From contig JAACJG010000001.1 of NCBI GenBank assembly GCA_009917695.1, positions 62,001 to 126,000 of the forward strand: DNA of 64,000 bases, written 5' to 3'. Positions 46,985-53,683 of this stretch are shown here, in pieces. The notes below the pieces were generated by a model, which saw only the letters and a list, made by a program, of their open reading frames with translations, was not told the origin of the DNA and did no database searches. A program made the position numbers and the translations under genes. Source of the stretch: Candidatus Rifleibacterium amylolyticum (GTDB taxonomy: Bacteria; Muiribacteriota; Ozemobacteria; Ozemobacterales; Ozemobacteraceae). How positions within the stretch are numbered: position 1 is the stretch's first letter; each line of letters begins with the position of its first letter.

Positions 46985-47150
46985 GAATCGTGCGCGTAAT
47001 CGTAATCGTGCTCGTAATCGATTTGCGCTGTCGTTTTTTCGACGCAGGCCACGGATGGCCAATTGTCGAGGCGCCTGTGGATACAGCGCGCATCGACTCA
47101 CGATTACCGCTTTGCTGATTACGAGCACCGCTTCGCTGAGCACGAGTAAA
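46985..47150. repeat. inverted pair of GTGCTCGTAATCG repeats
   Basis: The left copy holds CGTAATCGTAATCGTGCTCG followed by TAATCG. The right copy, on the other strand, holds GTGCTC, AGCGAAGCG, GTGCTCGTAATC, AGCAAAGCG and GTAATCG. The same GTGCTCGTAATCGTAATCG word recurs at 61436-61454. The units look modular, built of GTGCTC and GTAATC hexamers with nine-base insertions. Confidence 0.6.
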
Positions 47151-47277
47151 ACATCTGAGGTTAGACCTGTCGTTAACTTAGTGCCATTCTGGACAGGTTA
47201 TGATAAAATACTGGCGTAGTATAAAATATCACGTATATTTTTTACATGATTTTAACCACAGGGTGGAAATAGAATAT

Positions 47278-48993
47278 ATGACAACCGCTTTTACACGACG
47301 ATTCGCAGCTTTATGCCTGCTTTTTTCAGTGATTCTGTATGCCGGATGCGGCGGTGGTGGTGGTGGTGGCGGTGGCAACCCGGTTGCGCCGGGTACCGAT
47401 TATGTGCCGACATCTGAACTGGCTCCGAACACGCTGGCTTCTTTGGCGGCCCCGGCAGCTGTTTATCAGCATGACTCCGAAGCAGCCAATGTTTCGATAA
47501 AGCTGCCGATCGAGCAGGGAACAGCGGTCAATTACGCTCTCGTGGTTGTCAACTCATCAGACGTTTCACAATCTATCAAGCTGCGCCCGGAATCTTATGT
47601 TTTGTCGGGCTCTATGCTCGCACAGGCGGAAGCTGAAGCGCTCAAGGCTTCACATGTTGCTGTTGCTCCGGTCGATTCGCTGGGCGAAGCACGTGTCAGG
47701 CAGGCGCAGTTCGAAGAAATCATGCGCAAAGACTTTGTCAATAGCATCAGGAATGCTGGAGGCTCATCGGCGATTCGCCAGAGCAGATCACTGCGTTTAA
47801 GCGACCATTCGTCTGAGCAGGTAGGCGATACAGTCAATCTCAATATTATTGTCGATTATGACTGGTGGGGCACACACACTTACGACTCGCGCCGTTGCAA
47901 GCTGGTGCGCATGACCGATCACTGCAAAATTTTTGTCGATCAGGATTCTTACGAGGGTTTGAGCGCAGTTATCGGGACATATGCCATTACCGAAGACGAC
48001 CTGAATCATATCGTCACTGAATTCGAGACCTACATTTATCCTTTGATGAACGATAATTACGGCGAGGTCTACGATATTGACGGCGATGGCCGTCTCTCTA
48101 TCGTGTTTTCGCCGGTGTATCCCAAAGTCGGATTTGCCGGGCTTTTCAATACTCTGCACATGAACCCGATCAATCCCGCCAACAGCAATCAGCGTGATAT
48201 GATCGGTATCTGGACTCCGCACTCGCTTAGCAACAGTAGTTCTACCGGCGAGAAATGGCGCATGGACTCGCGCGAGACGATAGCCCACGAAATGCAGCAT
48301 GCAATAAATTTTTCTTACAAGATTTATCCGGGTGGTAAATTCAAATACCCTGATGATAGTAATTTCACCAAGAATGAAGACTCATATCTCGAAACATACT
48401 GGCTTGACGAAAGCCTGTCGGTTGGTTCCGAGGCCCGCTACCGGCTAAAAAGAATAGATGCAGGTCTACAAACGTCGATTTATGAAGCCCGATTTGATTC
48501 CTGGGCCAAGAGCGCACCGCATTCTTATGGCCTTACCGAATGGTCAAGCGTGCTCGCACATTATGGTCAGAAGGGATTGTTCAACTATTATCTGTATGAA
48601 CAGTATGGCGGCGAAAAAATCAAAGTCATGGTTCAGAGTCAGACTACTGGCGTCAACAATATCGAGGCTGTTTACGGCAAAAGCATGAAGGAACTGGCAA
48701 AGGGATTTTCTCTGGCGATCATCAACGAAAGCCTTCGCCGTGAAAAGCTGACCAGCGTTGCAACTATTGACAAAACTTACAAATTTGCAAAGGCAGTGAA
48801 TATTGACCTTGCCGAGCAGGTTGTAACTCTTGGTTACACGCCAATCAGTCTATCTGTGCCGAAAATGGGTACGGCCTACTACCTGCTCAAACAGCCGGCT
48901 TCTTTCGCTGGCGGTGAAGAGTTTCAGTTCAGAGTCGAATCAACCCAGGGTGAACCGGTCGAAATCATGCTGATGCGTCTGCCCAACCCGTAG
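47278..48993 (+). CDS. exported/lipoprotein gluzincin metalloprotease (M30-like)
   Basis: A 571-residue protein with a signal peptide ending in LYAGC; C24 followed by nine glycines suggests a lipoprotein with a flexible linker. The zinc site is H337-E338-x-x-H341 in AHEMQHAINF, with E378 in WLDESLS as likely third ligand. This pattern resembles the hyicolysin (M30) group. A DYDWWGTHTYD segment and a calcium-loop-like DIDGDGRLS precede it. It probably digests protein at the cell surface. The start at 47278 is chosen for the signal peptide; the ribosome-binding site is weak. Its stop codon abuts the first palindrome of the transposase module. Confidence 0.83.
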   Translation: MTTAFTRRFAALCLLFSVILYAGCGGGGGGGGGNPVAPGTDYVPTSELAPNTLASLAAPAAVYQHDSEAANVSIKLPIEQGTAVNYALVVVNSSDVSQSIKLRPESYVLSGSMLAQAEAEALKASHVAVAPVDSLGEARVRQAQFEEIMRKDFVNSIRNAGGSSAIRQSRSLRLSDHSSEQVGDTVNLNIIVDYDWWGTHTYDSRRCKLVRMTDHCKIFVDQDSYEGLSAVIGTYAITEDDLNHIVTEFETYIYPLMNDNYGEVYDIDGDGRLSIVFSPVYPKVGFAGLFNTLHMNPINPANSNQRDMIGIWTPHSLSNSSSTGEKWRMDSRETIAHEMQHAINFSYKIYPGGKFKYPDDSNFTKNEDSYLETYWLDESLSVGSEARYRLKRIDAGLQTSIYEARFDSWAKSAPHSYGLTEWSSVLAHYGQKGLFNYYLYEQYGGEKIKVMVQSQTTGVNNIEAVYGKSMKELAKGFSLAIINESLRREKLTSVATIDKTYKFAKAVNIDLAEQVVTLGYTPISLSVPKMGTAYYLLKQPASFAGGEEFQFRVESTQGEPVEIMLMRLPNP

Positions 48994-49046
48994 GAAACGG
49001 TCGCGTAGTAGGGAACGGTCGCGACCGTTCCCTACGCGACCGTTCC
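48993..49046. repeat. left REP-like palindrome of the transposase module
   Basis: A long hairpin with two tandem copies of GGAACGGTCGCGTAG per arm. The left arm differs from the right by one extra A and a three-base GTA insert. The inner part (GGGAACGGTCG with its complement) is a perfect palindrome. It begins on the last base of the metalloprotease stop codon. Confidence 0.85.
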
Positions 49047-49081
49047 AATTGAACGATTCAAATGGCAAAAATCTTATTGCG

Positions 49082-49576
49082 ATGAATCTTCGTGAACGAA
49101 AATTATTACGTTTGGCTGGATACGATTATGCAGCACCTGGCGCGTATTTTATAACGATCTGCGTCCATGGCCGCAACAATGAATTTGGCATAGTTGCCGG
49201 CGAAATGATGGAATTAAATGAATACGGTTCGATCATCGAACAGCAATGGAAATGGTTGTTTGACCAATACGATTATTTGCAGATCGACGAATATTGCGTC
49301 ATGCCCAACCATTTCCACGGCATAATATGGATTATTGCACCTGTTGGGGAACGCGATGTAAAAATCAAACCAATTCCAGAATTTATTGGTGCATTTAAAA
49401 CAACGTCGTCAAAATTGATTCATCGCGCCGGCAACGAACAATTCAAATGGCAAAAATCCTATTATGATGTGATCATTCGTGACAATGAATCGTTGCAGCG
49501 GATTAGAGAATATATCAGGGATAATCCGAAACATTGGGCCATGGATGATTATTTTAACAAACATTTCAAACGATAA
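49082..49576 (+). CDS. REP-associated tyrosine transposase (Y1_Tnp, IS200-like)
   Basis: A 164-residue single-domain HUH enzyme. The N-terminus LLRLAGYDYAAPGAYFITIC is typical of RAYTs. The HUH motif is H77-F-H79 in MPNHFHGIIWI and the catalytic tyrosine is Y127 or Y128 in WQKSYYDVIIRD, followed by REYIRDNPKHW. All key residues are present. The loop between the HUH and Tyr regions is short for the family. The ATG at 49082 starts where homology begins; a TTG at 49049 opens the frame earlier but that part repeats a piece of the gene's own 3' half. No good ribosome-binding site is seen. Confidence 0.88.
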   Translation: MNLRERKLLRLAGYDYAAPGAYFITICVHGRNNEFGIVAGEMMELNEYGSIIEQQWKWLFDQYDYLQIDEYCVMPNHFHGIIWIIAPVGERDVKIKPIPEFIGAFKTTSSKLIHRAGNEQFKWQKSYYDVIIRDNESLQRIREYIRDNPKHWAMDDYFNKHFKR

Positions 49577-49591
49577 TCGTATAACGGTTGC

Positions 49592-49627
49592 ACCGGTAGG
49601 GAACGGTCGCGACCGTTCCTTACCGGT
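49592..49627. repeat. right REP-like palindrome of the transposase module
   Basis: ACCGGTAGGGAACGGTCG pairs with CGACCGTTCCTTACCGGT with one mismatch in 18. The TAA stop of the S9 peptidase gene (minus strand) lies at 49620-49622 within its right arm. Confidence 0.85.
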
Positions 49628-52058
49628 TGCGGCCGCGGTGCTTGACGTGTGTGTCGAACCAGTCGAACATCTCGACGAGTGTATGCAGAATCGATTCGCG
49701 CGCTTCGTAGCTGTGCCCTTCGAAAGGCAGAACGACAAGGCGGACGGTGCCGCCGTGGCCCTTGATTGCGCCGAACATGCGCTGGCTCTGTATCGGGAAG
49801 GTTCCCGGGTTCGGGTCGTCAGCGCCATGCAGCAGCAAAATAGGTTCTTTAATTTTATCTGCATGAGTGAACGCTGACATGTGGGTGTAGATGTCGCGGG
49901 CCTCCCAGAAGGTGCGGCGCTCACCCTGAAATCCGAATGGTGTCAATGTTCGATTGTAGGCTCCACTGCGTGCAATGCCTGCAGCGAACAGGTCTGTGTG
50001 GGCAAGCAGATTGGCTACCATGAAGGCCCCATAAGAGTGTCCGGCTATGCCGATGCGGTCGCGGTCCGCCACGCCCAGTTCGACAAGCTTGTCTACTGCG
50101 GCTTTGGCACCGGCGCTGATCTGTTCGACAAAATTATCGTTGGCGGTCAGCGGGTCGCCGACGACTGGAATTGTTGCATTATCGAGTACGACATAACCGC
50201 GCAGCAGAAAGAACAGTATCGATGTACCGCTGATCCTGGCATAGCGATTGGTTGCCGCCCGCACCTGACCAGCCGTGCTGATGTCGGTGTATTCGCGCGG
50301 ATAAGCCCAGACAATGGCCGGGTAGCGCCGGCCAGGTTTGTAATTTAACGGATAGTAGAGAGTTCCCGACAATGGCACGCCGTCGTCGCGTTCGTATTTG
50401 ATCAGCTCTTTTTTGACGTTCGCAAGCTCTGGCGCTGGTGGTTCAAATGCGGTCAGCGCAACTGGCTCACCGGCGCTGTAGTCGCTGATATTTCTGACGA
50501 AGTAATTTGCTGGAGTTTCGACGTCTTCGCGGCTGGTAACAATGGTTTTGAGCTCATTGTCGGCAAAATCGACGAAACTCTCGAAAACTTCGCTGCCCGA
50601 AACTATTATGTCATGCTTCTCACCGGTGAACAGGTTGTAACGGCGCAGAAACGGGCGAAACCCCTCGGGCGTCGCGCCTCTGCCGTCAAGATAGACCCAG
50701 TTGTCGTCTTCAAGAATCGCCAGCGATTCACCGGCGCTGTTGATGCGGTAAACCAGTGTTCCTTCGTCGTTATACTGATCCGAATAATTGCGCGAAAACA
50801 CAACCCGACTCTCTGAAGCAGTATTGGTGCGGCTCATGTCGATGATTCGCGACTTGATCCATTTGGTGTCGCGGTCGTAGTCCCAGATCATCGCCATATC
50901 TTTTTTGTTGAACTGATCTAGCCCTGAATAGCGCATGGGCAGGCGTATAATCTCGCGCGGTTTCCCTTGGAAAGGCGCGTCGTAAGCTTTGAGAACATCG
51001 CGGAATTCAGCGCTGCGATTCGGGTCGCCACCGTCGAGAGCTTCGACCCAGCACAGGGTGGCAGGCTGCATTCGCTGCCAGAACGGAGAACGCATGCCGG
51101 TAATGACTCCTTCGATTGGAATCTCTTCGCCGGCCGGTTGCTGCGCCAGAGTTTTCAGGTGGCGGCCGTTGATGTCCCAGAGTTCGTAGCGGTGCGCAAA
51201 GCGGCCAACGGTAACGGTGCGCGAGAAAGGCTTTTCGATTATTTTTGCCAGTGCGTATTTGCCGTCAGGAGAACTGCTGACACTGCTGATAAGAGCTGGC
51301 GGCCCGAATTTAGCGCCTCTCCCGGTGGCAACATTGTAGCTGTAAACCTGAGATGTGGCGTAATATTCAAACAACTTCTCGTCGTGGTCAGTCTGAATCA
51401 GATCCTGAAACGTGCGTACCTGCGAGACGCGCCCGCTGGTCTCCTGAATTTCAGGGGTTTCCGGCAGCAGCGGCGCTTCCGGGGGCACGCCGCGTTTTTC
51501 GGGCCAGAGTGGAACATAGAGGGTTCGGCTGTCACGACTCCACCAGAACGGACTCAGCAGCACCGAATTGAGTCGAGGCGGCGACAGGCGTTTGCCGGTT
51601 CCCTTGAATGGATCAAAAAGCCAGACTTCAGAGCCGTCTTTTTGATAGAGCGCGGCAGCAAATAGCTTGCCATCGGGTGACCAGGTCGGATGCCCGAATT
51701 TTTTGCCTTCGGGCAGCTTTATTGGCGTGGTTTTGCCGGTTGCGAGATCGAGCAGTTGAATCGACTGCACGTAATAACTGCGTTTGGGAATATTGTAGCG
51801 CGTGAGAATGCGCATGCCGGCAAGTCTGGCCTGTGGTTCTGCGAGATCTTCGAGGCTGAGCTGGGTGGTCGATTCGACCAGCAGCGCGGTTTTACCCTGA
51901 GGGTTGATGGTGAGCTGCGGCGGGTTCGGTTTATCGACGATTTTTACAATCTGTTTGTCAGGAACGCGGTAACCTTGTCTGGCCATAATATGATTCACTG
52001 CCGGGAGAGAAAACACCAACAGACATATCAGCAGCCTGGTCAGTTCGTTTTTTCCCAT
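49620..52058 (-). CDS. exported S9 prolyl oligopeptidase-family peptidase
   Basis: An 812-residue periplasmic peptidase with a signal peptide (MGKNELTRLLICLLVFSLPA). A beta-propeller region (about 60-540, with TWSPDGKLFAAALYQ and SSVSSSPDGKYALAK) gates the C-terminal alpha/beta hydrolase. Its triad is Ser in IAGHSYGAFMVA, Asp in LLHGADDPNPGT and His in FEGHSYEAR. The layout is that of S9C/glutamyl-endopeptidase-like enzymes. It would trim peptides from protein digestion. AAAGG precedes the ATG. The stop codon is inside the right REP palindrome, and the C-terminus ends in a basic KHRGRNR. Confidence 0.92.
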   Translation of the reverse strand: MGKNELTRLLICLLVFSLPAVNHIMARQGYRVPDKQIVKIVDKPNPPQLTINPQGKTALLVESTTQLSLEDLAEPQARLAGMRILTRYNIPKRSYYVQSIQLLDLATGKTTPIKLPEGKKFGHPTWSPDGKLFAAALYQKDGSEVWLFDPFKGTGKRLSPPRLNSVLLSPFWWSRDSRTLYVPLWPEKRGVPPEAPLLPETPEIQETSGRVSQVRTFQDLIQTDHDEKLFEYYATSQVYSYNVATGRGAKFGPPALISSVSSSPDGKYALAKIIEKPFSRTVTVGRFAHRYELWDINGRHLKTLAQQPAGEEIPIEGVITGMRSPFWQRMQPATLCWVEALDGGDPNRSAEFRDVLKAYDAPFQGKPREIIRLPMRYSGLDQFNKKDMAMIWDYDRDTKWIKSRIIDMSRTNTASESRVVFSRNYSDQYNDEGTLVYRINSAGESLAILEDDNWVYLDGRGATPEGFRPFLRRYNLFTGEKHDIIVSGSEVFESFVDFADNELKTIVTSREDVETPANYFVRNISDYSAGEPVALTAFEPPAPELANVKKELIKYERDDGVPLSGTLYYPLNYKPGRRYPAIVWAYPREYTDISTAGQVRAATNRYARISGTSILFFLLRGYVVLDNATIPVVGDPLTANDNFVEQISAGAKAAVDKLVELGVADRDRIGIAGHSYGAFMVANLLAHTDLFAAGIARSGAYNRTLTPFGFQGERRTFWEARDIYTHMSAFTHADKIKEPILLLHGADDPNPGTFPIQSQRMFGAIKGHGGTVRLVVLPFEGHSYEARESILHTLVEMFDWFDTHVKHRGRNR

Positions 52059-52180: not shown

Positions 52181-53449
52181 TCAGCGGGCGAATACGTAAC
52201 CGAGTTTCTTGGTGAAGTTGCCGGCTGCACAGGCAACGCTTGAGAGAAGATTACCACCTGCCTGCGCGACCCAGCCGGTCGCTTTTACCAGGCTGCCAGC
52301 TACTACGGCAGTGCCGCCGAGCAGGGTGTTGCCAAAACCGCCGCCATTGAGTTTGCTTTTGCCCCAGTCGACGATTTTGTCGCCGCCGGCCTTGAAGCCT
52401 TTGCCGGTAACGCCGAGAACGGTTCCGGGAATGCCAAGGGTGCATTTTACGATGCCGCCGGCGAACTGCATCGGAGCGATGCGTTTGAAACCGGTAACTA
52501 CATCGTTGATTCCGCTGGCCATGGTGTCTTCCATGGCAGTGTTGAAGTTAAAATTGAATGCCGCCGGGGACTGAGCCGCTTCTCGGGGACCATTGATGTC
52601 GATAAGAAGATTCTTGTAGCCGAGCAGGCTGTTGGGAAGTTTGTTGCCTACCGGGTCTTCCCAGGCTGTTTTGAATTTTTCGATGCTCATGGTGTAGCCA
52701 CTGCTAGTTCCCCAGTATGAATCACGCATTTTCACGCCGGTCACATTGCCGCTGCTGTCGGTGGTGTAACCGTAGATGGTGACCCAGTGCGGCGTGCCGC
52801 TGCCAGAATTTACCAGTGCTATAACCGGTTTGCCGGCATCGATTTTGTTGGTAATGTCGGTGATCGAGGCGTTGTGACGCTGTACAGCATCGACGCCATT
52901 CATGTTGAGGTATTCGACGATGGTTGGCGGAGCAGTAAAAATTCCGGCCGGGTTGGTGTTTTTATAGGCAGTCTGCGGGTCGTGCGGAATTCCCAGGCCA
53001 TGGAAAGCTGAGGTCATGGCAAACTGGCCGCAGTAGTTGTCGCCATCGATGCTGATCTGCTGATTGTCGAAGCCGGGCAGTTCTTTGCTGGACTCAGCGG
53101 TGGGAGCCGAGGCTTCGCCGCTGCCGGTTGCAAATACCTTGCCGAGGGTTTCCTTGACCTTGTCGGCTGCTTCTTTAACCTTGTCTTTGGTTGACTGTGA
53201 GATTTCAAACTGCTTTCGCACCTCTTCGTAATTGCGTTTGGCAGCTTCGACTTCGTTGGCTAGATCTTTTTTGGCGCCGGTGACAGTGTTGTTGAGCGAA
53301 TCGACATACTGTTTGTACAGGCGCTCGTATTTCATGCGTGCTTCTTCGAGTTCACGCTGCAGTTTTTCGGCGCTGAGCACTGAAGTGAGCATGCACAGCA
53401 GAACGACGCACGCAAGCGCTAACCCTGTCTGTTTGAACGTTCTATTCAT
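52181..53449 (-). CDS. exported C39-like cysteine protease with coiled coil and hydrophobic tail
   Basis: A 422-residue protein. A signal peptide (MNRTFKQTGLALACVVLLCM) is followed by a coiled coil (residues 27-105, LQRELEEARMKYERLYKQYV). A C39-like papain-fold domain (125-285) has C140 in DNYCGQFAM, H221 in TPHWVTIYGY and D243 in RDSYWG, a complete triad. The last 110 residues are Gly-rich and hydrophobic (GTVLGVTGKGFKAGGDKI, GGNLLSSVACAAGNF) and could enter a membrane. C39 proteins cleave double-Gly leaders, but this one lacks the ABC fusion. It may be a secreted effector or autolysin. GGAGG precedes the ATG. Confidence 0.8.
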   Translation of the reverse strand: MNRTFKQTGLALACVVLLCMLTSVLSAEKLQRELEEARMKYERLYKQYVDSLNNTVTGAKKDLANEVEAAKRNYEEVRKQFEISQSTKDKVKEAADKVKETLGKVFATGSGEASAPTAESSKELPGFDNQQISIDGDNYCGQFAMTSAFHGLGIPHDPQTAYKNTNPAGIFTAPPTIVEYLNMNGVDAVQRHNASITDITNKIDAGKPVIALVNSGSGTPHWVTIYGYTTDSSGNVTGVKMRDSYWGTSSGYTMSIEKFKTAWEDPVGNKLPNSLLGYKNLLIDINGPREAAQSPAAFNFNFNTAMEDTMASGINDVVTGFKRIAPMQFAGGIVKCTLGIPGTVLGVTGKGFKAGGDKIVDWGKSKLNGGGFGNTLLGGTAVVAGSLVKATGWVAQAGGNLLSSVACAAGNFTKKLGYVFAR

Positions 53450-53683
53450 AGCGACCTCCATTCAATGGCCGTAATCTTCAAGTTTGCCTTTAATTATAAG
53501 AACAGACACCACAACCGTCAATGTACCGACGCATAAATATGATGTTTTAGACAAAAGCAACGGTCGCTCTGCGCGAGTTCGCTCAGGACTCTGCGCAGCT
53601 CTGGCGAAGCAGGGGGGCAGGTGCATGATGACAAAAATCAATGCCTCGCTATTGTTCTGTCAGGTTTTGCCAGGGATTGCTGA
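53450..53683. other. promoter-bearing spacer
   Basis: It holds the promoter of the C39-like gene (53493-53521) and a stretch with imperfect CTGCGCGAG/CTGCGCAG repeats (53570-53612). No gene is supported: a plus-strand open frame here has no family features. Confidence 0.5.
53493..53521 (-). promoter_or_regulatory. promoter of the C39-like protease gene
   Basis: TTGACG (53521-53516), 17 bases, TATAAT (53498-53493) on the minus strand, about 37 bases from transcript start to the ATG. Confidence 0.85.

What the first reader, a model, noticed from the sequence alone, without database searches (positions are those of the whole stretch)
48993..49627. REP-associated transposase that exactly fills a convergent spacer between two protease genes
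A RAYT gene with an intact HFH motif and catalytic Tyr lies between two palindromes sharing GGGAACGGTCGCGACCGTTCC. The left palindrome starts on the last base of one stop codon, and the right one contains the stop codon of the other gene. Either insertion was precise or the palindromes now supply the gene ends and perhaps the terminators. RAYTs are known to act on REPs; the link to this sequence is inferred.
Basis: partly seen in the sequence, partly recalled or inferred. Interest (0 to 1): 0.6.

Follow-up and report, generated by a model that had tools for sequence, protein, structure and literature searches.

The report
Transposase-like gene with its palindromic repeats
A small DNA-cutting gene related to transposases sits between two genes with its matching 28-letter palindromes on either side; it is a new example of a known pairing (a "REPtron"), notable because the gene is evolutionarily younger than the spot it occupies in three related species and because the same palindrome recurs in at least 15 bacterial phyla.

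Summary
An intact RAYT (TnpA_REP) gene, 49082-49576 (+), lies between two palindromes sharing GGGAACGGTCGCGACCGTTCC (0.02 matches expected by chance). The unit is a 28-nt "double-foot" GTAG REP. The gene best fits TnpAY1 subclass 2.4 (Quentin 2018), known for such REPs and for in-frame REPs inside the transposase gene.

This genome has only two copies, both here. Elsewhere it is a dispersed REP (1 to ~40 exact copies per genome, at least 15 phyla) tied to one RAYT clade.

Precise insertion is not supported. Two congeners carry the RAYT in the same slot without flanking REPs; their REP lies in frame inside the gene, where the window keeps only a probable scar. Gene 1's stop is native; the right REP truncated gene 2's tail and supplies its stop.

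In-gene REPs of the clade share one frame and keep their codons (93% versus 49% elsewhere), with compensatory changes preserving the palindrome.

Unexpected: RAYT synonymous divergence (4-fold identity 0.80 and 1.00) is far below that of 21 syntenic genes (0.33-0.65). The RAYT is younger than the species split yet in the same slot: recurrent entry or allelic replacement.

The parts
47200..48993 (+). Gene 1, 597 aa, HEMQH metalloprotease-like motif; native stop TAG 48991-48993
   Evidence: ORF; no Pfam/NCBIfam match; ends ...NP-stop also in G001, G002, G005
48990..49046 (.). Left REP complex: outer split REP (48990-49005 + 49035-49046) with a complete 28-nt REP nested inside (49008-49035)
49008..49035 (.). 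Perfect 28-nt double-foot REP GTAGGGAACGGTCGCGACCGTTCCCTAC
49051..49084 (+). 88% copy of the RAYT's own 49436-49469 segment, overlying the leader and the ATG
   Evidence: the leaders of G001/G002 differ
49082..49576 (+). RAYT (TnpA_REP, HuH-Tyr nuclease), 164 aa from ATG; only RAYT found in the genome
49310..49318 (+). HFH of the HuH motif (NHFH)
49343..49357 (+). Linker codons V-G-E-R-D, probable remnant of the in-gene REP (V-G-N-G-R-D-R-S-L in relatives)
   Evidence: inference
49511..49513 (+). Codon of the invariant, presumed catalytic Tyr144
49592..49627 (.). Right REP, 18-bp arms (28-nt core 49596-49623), contains gene 2's stop
49620..52058 (-). Gene 2, S9 prolyl-oligopeptidase family, 812 aa; last residue and stop TAA come from the right REP
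   Evidence: tail comparison

Best explanation
This is a REPtron: one RAYT gene with its cognate double-foot GTAG REPs. The RAYT is inferred to be an HuH-Tyr nuclease that recognises the REP as a single-stranded hairpin with a GTAG foot, nicks it through Tyr144, and so helps REPs spread (in vitro processing is shown for E. coli TnpA_REP; inferred here). History inferred from congeners: the RAYT occupied this convergent slot with its REP inside the coding sequence; in the window's lineage the in-gene REP eroded and REPs were laid down outside the gene, on the left at gene 1's native GTAG stop (one REP nested in another) and on the right replacing gene 2's tail and supplying its stop. The flanking REPs are REP copies beside the gene, not the ends of a unit that inserted precisely.
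For: Family, profile and fold: Y1_Tnp, REP_Tyr_transpos (below its cut-off), 4er8 by profile, ISDra2/IS608/4er8 by fold; HuH, Tyr and Asn invariant. REP core confined to one RAYT clade; 13 of 20 palindrome pairs within a locus differ at 3 or fewer of 18 core positions versus 17% between loci. In-gene REP at the same linker and frame in relatives, including G001/G002 in the same slot. Gene 2 tail shared by G001, G002, G005 but lost in the window. The palindrome is a dispersed REP elsewhere. Subclass 2.4 hallmarks match the literature (PMC6006769).
Against: Only two copies in this genome, so no sign of recent REP spread here. 6 of 30 palindrome-bearing genomes had no RAYT detected, three of them with 11-18 copies; these may be incomplete MAGs. 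The Y motif is YIRDNP, not the exact YIxNNP. The order of events on the left side is not fixed by an outgroup. Some tree rows were found through the palindrome itself.
Confidence: 0.8

Rival explanations
1. The RAYT module entered the same convergent slot separately in these species after they diverged (site-specific or hot-spot insertion), with the ends of the neighbours (GTAR at gene 1's stop) as target.
For: RAYT 4-fold identity 0.80 and 1.00 against 0.33-0.65 for 21 syntenic genes; block borders lie close to both neighbours' stops; RAYT G+C 0.40 against 0.49-0.55; G005 has a different gene in the slot.
Against: Independent hits on one slot are improbable without a targeting mechanism; leaders of all three share GGCAAAAATC, which suggests common descent of the junction.
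Confidence: 0.3
2. One ancestral insertion in the slot, later overwritten by recombination with incoming RAYT copies (allelic replacement), which makes the gene look younger than its surroundings.
For: Same slot in three congeners; partly shared leader; same divergence data; synonymous constraint excluded since distant RAYT pairs are saturated at 0.35.
Against: Recombination would usually drag flanking DNA along; the block ends sharply near the stop codons.
Confidence: 0.5
3. A palindrome-RAYT-palindrome unit inserted precisely between the two stop codons.
For: Geometry in the window: both palindromes abut the stops.
Against: Congeners have the RAYT in this slot without the palindromes; the right palindrome replaces gene 2's tail; left and right differ in structure, nested versus single.
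Confidence: 0.07
4. The palindromes are transcription terminators or mRNA-end elements of the two neighbours, unrelated to the RAYT.
For: They abut both 3' ends and fold strongly; 15 of 107 sites elsewhere supply a neighbour's stop.
Against: No T-tract, no Rfam match; the same palindrome occurs inside RAYT genes and tracks one RAYT clade. A side role at transcript ends is not excluded.
Confidence: 0.08

Closest known systems
TnpAY1 subclass 2.4 REPtrons (group 4 of Bertels), Quentin et al. 2018, PMC6006769
   Same: NH[IFV]H, WQ and Y---NP motifs, double-foot REPs, REPs flanking the gene and in frame inside it between HuH and Y in relatives
   Different: The window copy has lost the in-gene REP; Y motif YIRDNP; only two REPs in the genome; gene younger than its slot
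E. coli TnpA_REP REPtron (subclass 2.2; structure 4er8; in vitro work PMC8266576)
   Same: HuH-Tyr fold, GTAG-tagged REP hairpin next to the gene
   Different: E. coli REPs are bulged, single-footed and numerous; here perfect palindromes with GTAG at both feet and two copies
GTAG REPs of Di Nocera et al. 2013, PMC3733652
   Same: REP foot TAG used as stop codon of a flanking gene, REPs close to 3' ends, intragenic REPs
   Different: That paper defines tags at one end; its text held no mention of REPs within RAYT genes by the terms searched
IS200/IS605 insertion sequences (IS608, ISDra2)
   Same: Same nuclease fold
   Different: Single copy, no tnpB, Y---NP motif rather than Y---Q, REPs instead of IS end hairpins

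Membership tests
TnpAY1 subclass 2.4 RAYT | HuH motif NH[IFV]H | tested here: met
   NHFH, both His invariant
TnpAY1 subclass 2.4 RAYT | W motif WQ | tested here: met
   FKWQKS
TnpAY1 subclass 2.4 RAYT | Y motif YIxNNP (class 2: Y---NP) | tested here: inconclusive
   Window YIRDNP fits class 2 Y---NP but not the exact subclass motif; G001/G002 have YIKNNP
TnpAY1 subclass 2.4 RAYT | Double-foot REP flanking the gene | tested here: met
   GTAGGG...CCCTAC at 49008-49035; right copy with one changed base in a foot
TnpAY1 subclass 2.4 RAYT | REP in frame inside the gene (predominant, not universal) | tested here: not met
   Absent in the window, probable scar only; present in orthologs G001, G002
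TnpAY1 subclass 2.4 RAYT | Placement within the published subclass tree | not tested
REPtron (RAYT with dispersed cognate REPs) | Cognate REPs next to the RAYT | tested here: met
REPtron (RAYT with dispersed cognate REPs) | Dispersed copies in the same genome | tested here: not met
   Two copies only, both at the RAYT; dispersed in other genomes
REPtron (RAYT with dispersed cognate REPs) | Enzyme processes its REP | not testable with these tools
   Needs an in vitro assay
IS200/IS605 insertion sequence | Y motif Y---Q and several near-identical copies | tested here: not met
   Y---NP; single RAYT copy in the genome

The most novel reading that the evidence does not exclude
The RAYT module itself is mobile and returns to the same slot: in three congeners it occupies one convergent spacer but is younger than the species split, with borders at the neighbours' stop codons, so it is either re-inserted site-specifically or repeatedly swapped. 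In addition, the in-gene REP is held as DNA (a hairpin inside a coding region, kept by compensatory changes that alter the protein) and acts as the tag that defines which REP family the enzyme serves.
Probability: 0.3. Interest if true: 0.65.

Novelty: new member of a known kind. Interest (0 to 1): 0.4.

Why it matters
RAYTs are described as mostly vertically inherited, domesticated genes (background in PMC6006769). A slot in which the gene is clearly younger than its conserved surroundings gives a concrete place to test whether and how RAYTs move. The clade also shows a stretch of coding sequence kept as a DNA palindrome and found letter for letter in at least 15 phyla, so the RAYT-REP pairing can be tested directly with matched and mismatched pairs.

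Tried and rejected
Precise insertion as a bounded unit: rejected by the congener comparison. Intrinsic terminators: no T-tract, no Rfam family in 47000-52000. Slow synonymous change as the cause of low RAYT divergence: rejected, distant RAYT pairs are saturated. Cross-genus transfer from L016/L017/L018: not usable, the similarity runs along whole contigs and G003 is listed at 9% contamination. Smithella pair L103/L270: RAYT and about 700 bases beyond it are homologous at 73%, consistent with vertical descent there. Plasmid carriage: no match; no PHROG match. Single-sequence PDB search found nothing; the profile found 4er8. A DNA alignment with wrongly chosen G002 coordinates was replaced by the codon view. 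First family scans failed on a wrong frame.

Full report
1. Observation. The 21-mer occurs at two sites, each read on both strands; shuffled sequence gives 0.02 matches. The repeat unit is 28 nt, GTAGGGAACGGTCGCGACCGTTCCCTAC, with GTAG at both feet. The left copy is nested in a second, split copy, and the right copy has arms of 18 bp. As single-stranded DNA the left stretch folds at -26.4 kcal/mol (z -7.8) and the right at -17.8 (z -6.3).

2. The protein. Pfam Y1_Tnp (2.1e-7) and NCBIfam REP_Tyr_transpos (1.2e-14 but below its curated cut-off) match. A seven-sequence profile finds the E. coli TnpA_REP structure 4er8 (7.9e-6). The AlphaFold model (mean pLDDT 83) matches ISDra2, IS608 and 4er8 by Foldseek. 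Both HuH histidines, Tyr144 and Asn148 are invariant in the alignment. The linker where relatives carry the REP (residues about 85-97) is a loop between a strand and a helix. Motifs NHFH, WQ and Y---NP point to TnpAY1 subclass 2.4 (PMC6006769), whose published hallmarks are double-foot REPs and in-frame REPs within the gene.

3. Copies of the palindrome. The 5.39-Mb genome has two copies, both at this RAYT, and one RAYT. Among 40 genomes of the phylum only five carry it (one mismatch allowed): G000, G001, G002, G026, G030, all of which have RAYTs. Thirty of these genomes carry about 1 to 40 exact copies, and 24 of the 30 have a detectable RAYT. Of 107 distinct sites, 79 have the identical 28 nt. 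By length-predicted ORFs, 51 lie between codirectional ORFs, 30 inside ORFs, 15 between convergent and 8 between divergent ORFs; at 15 the foot's TAG is a neighbour's stop codon. That last habit is known for GTAG REPs (PMC3733652).

4. RAYT and REP go together. Many RAYTs found by protein search alone carry a perfect 28-29-nt double-foot palindrome at the same linker, with differing cores. Of 20 palindrome pairs within a locus, 13 differ at 3 or fewer of 18 core positions, against 17% of pairs between loci. On a tree of 43 RAYTs the window's REP core falls in one group of 14 (11 with it), 3 changes against 9.9 in shuffles; caveat: some rows were found through the palindrome. In G002 a second RAYT's contig ends inside GTAGGGGTTCAACAT, the start of the second REP family dispersed in this genus, so there too the in-gene REP appears to equal the dispersed REP.

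5. The in-gene REP is conserved as DNA. In the window's clade all 12 in-gene copies that could be read are in the same frame (VGNGRDRSL or a variant). Where amino acids agree, codons agree in 93% of REP positions against 49% elsewhere; for RAYTs found by protein search only, 27/27 against 52%. L101 and L082 show paired changes that keep the palindrome while altering the protein (AAT...CAT; AGT...TGT). Whether this is selection or recopying from other REPs is not shown.

6. The slot in relatives. G001 and G002 have the RAYT between the same two genes, without flanking REPs and with REPs inside the gene. G005 has another gene there; G012 has only a terminator-like hairpin with a T run. Gene 1 ends in NP-stop in G001, G002 and G005. 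Gene 2's tail (LK...) is present in G001, G002 and G005 and cut off in the window. The window linker V-G-E-R-D reads as a remnant of the REP peptide (inference). So the right REP is derived in the window's lineage, probably the left as well, and insertion as a bounded unit is not supported.

7. The age mismatch. Fourfold-site identity of the RAYT is 33/41 for window-G002 and 24/24 for G001-G002, while the two neighbours pool to 238/520 and 222/399 (Fisher 1.5e-5 and 1.6e-6). Twenty-one syntenic genes over 34 kb lie at 0.33-0.65 against G002. The high-identity block stops close to both neighbours' stop codons. Distant RAYT pairs are saturated (0.35), so slow synonymous change is not the reason. 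RAYT G+C is 0.40 against 0.49-0.55 for the neighbours. The RAYT sequence in this slot is thus younger than the species split. Recurrent entry and allelic replacement both fit; the data do not separate them.

8. Verdict. A new member of a known kind (a double-foot REPtron, subclass 2.4-like) in a partly novel evolutionary setting. Function as a REP-cutting nuclease is inferred from family, fold and pairing, not shown.

Noticed in passing
G000:C4:286110, C5:100862, C7:134502, C16:32283 (loci L289, L290, L292, L294): A second 28-nt double-foot REP family, GTAGGGGTTCAACATGTTGAACCCCTAC, has four exact copies in the window's genome and more in G001, G002 and G005; no cognate RAYT was found in the window's genome.
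   Followed up: partly
L288 (end of G002:C21); L296 (start of G008:C246): RAYT genes break off at contig ends; in L288 the contig stops inside the in-gene REP, so these repeats probably break assemblies and hide RAYTs.
   Followed up: partly
window 49051-49084 and 49436-49469: The RAYT's leader and start codon lie on an 88% copy of its own 3' segment, as if made by template switching; the congeners' leaders differ.
   Followed up: partly
L107 2549-3037: An SR1 bacterium carries a clade member with the same in-gene REP that reads open with TGA as glycine (code 25).
   Followed up: partly
L101 1817-1844 and the 3' REP of L270: The 3' REP's TAG is the RAYT's own stop codon in these loci.
   Followed up: no
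window 52181-53461 (-): The next gene has a DNYCGQFAMTSAF stretch that looks like a C39-type cysteine peptidase domain, so several peptidase-like genes cluster here; judged by eye only.
   Followed up: no
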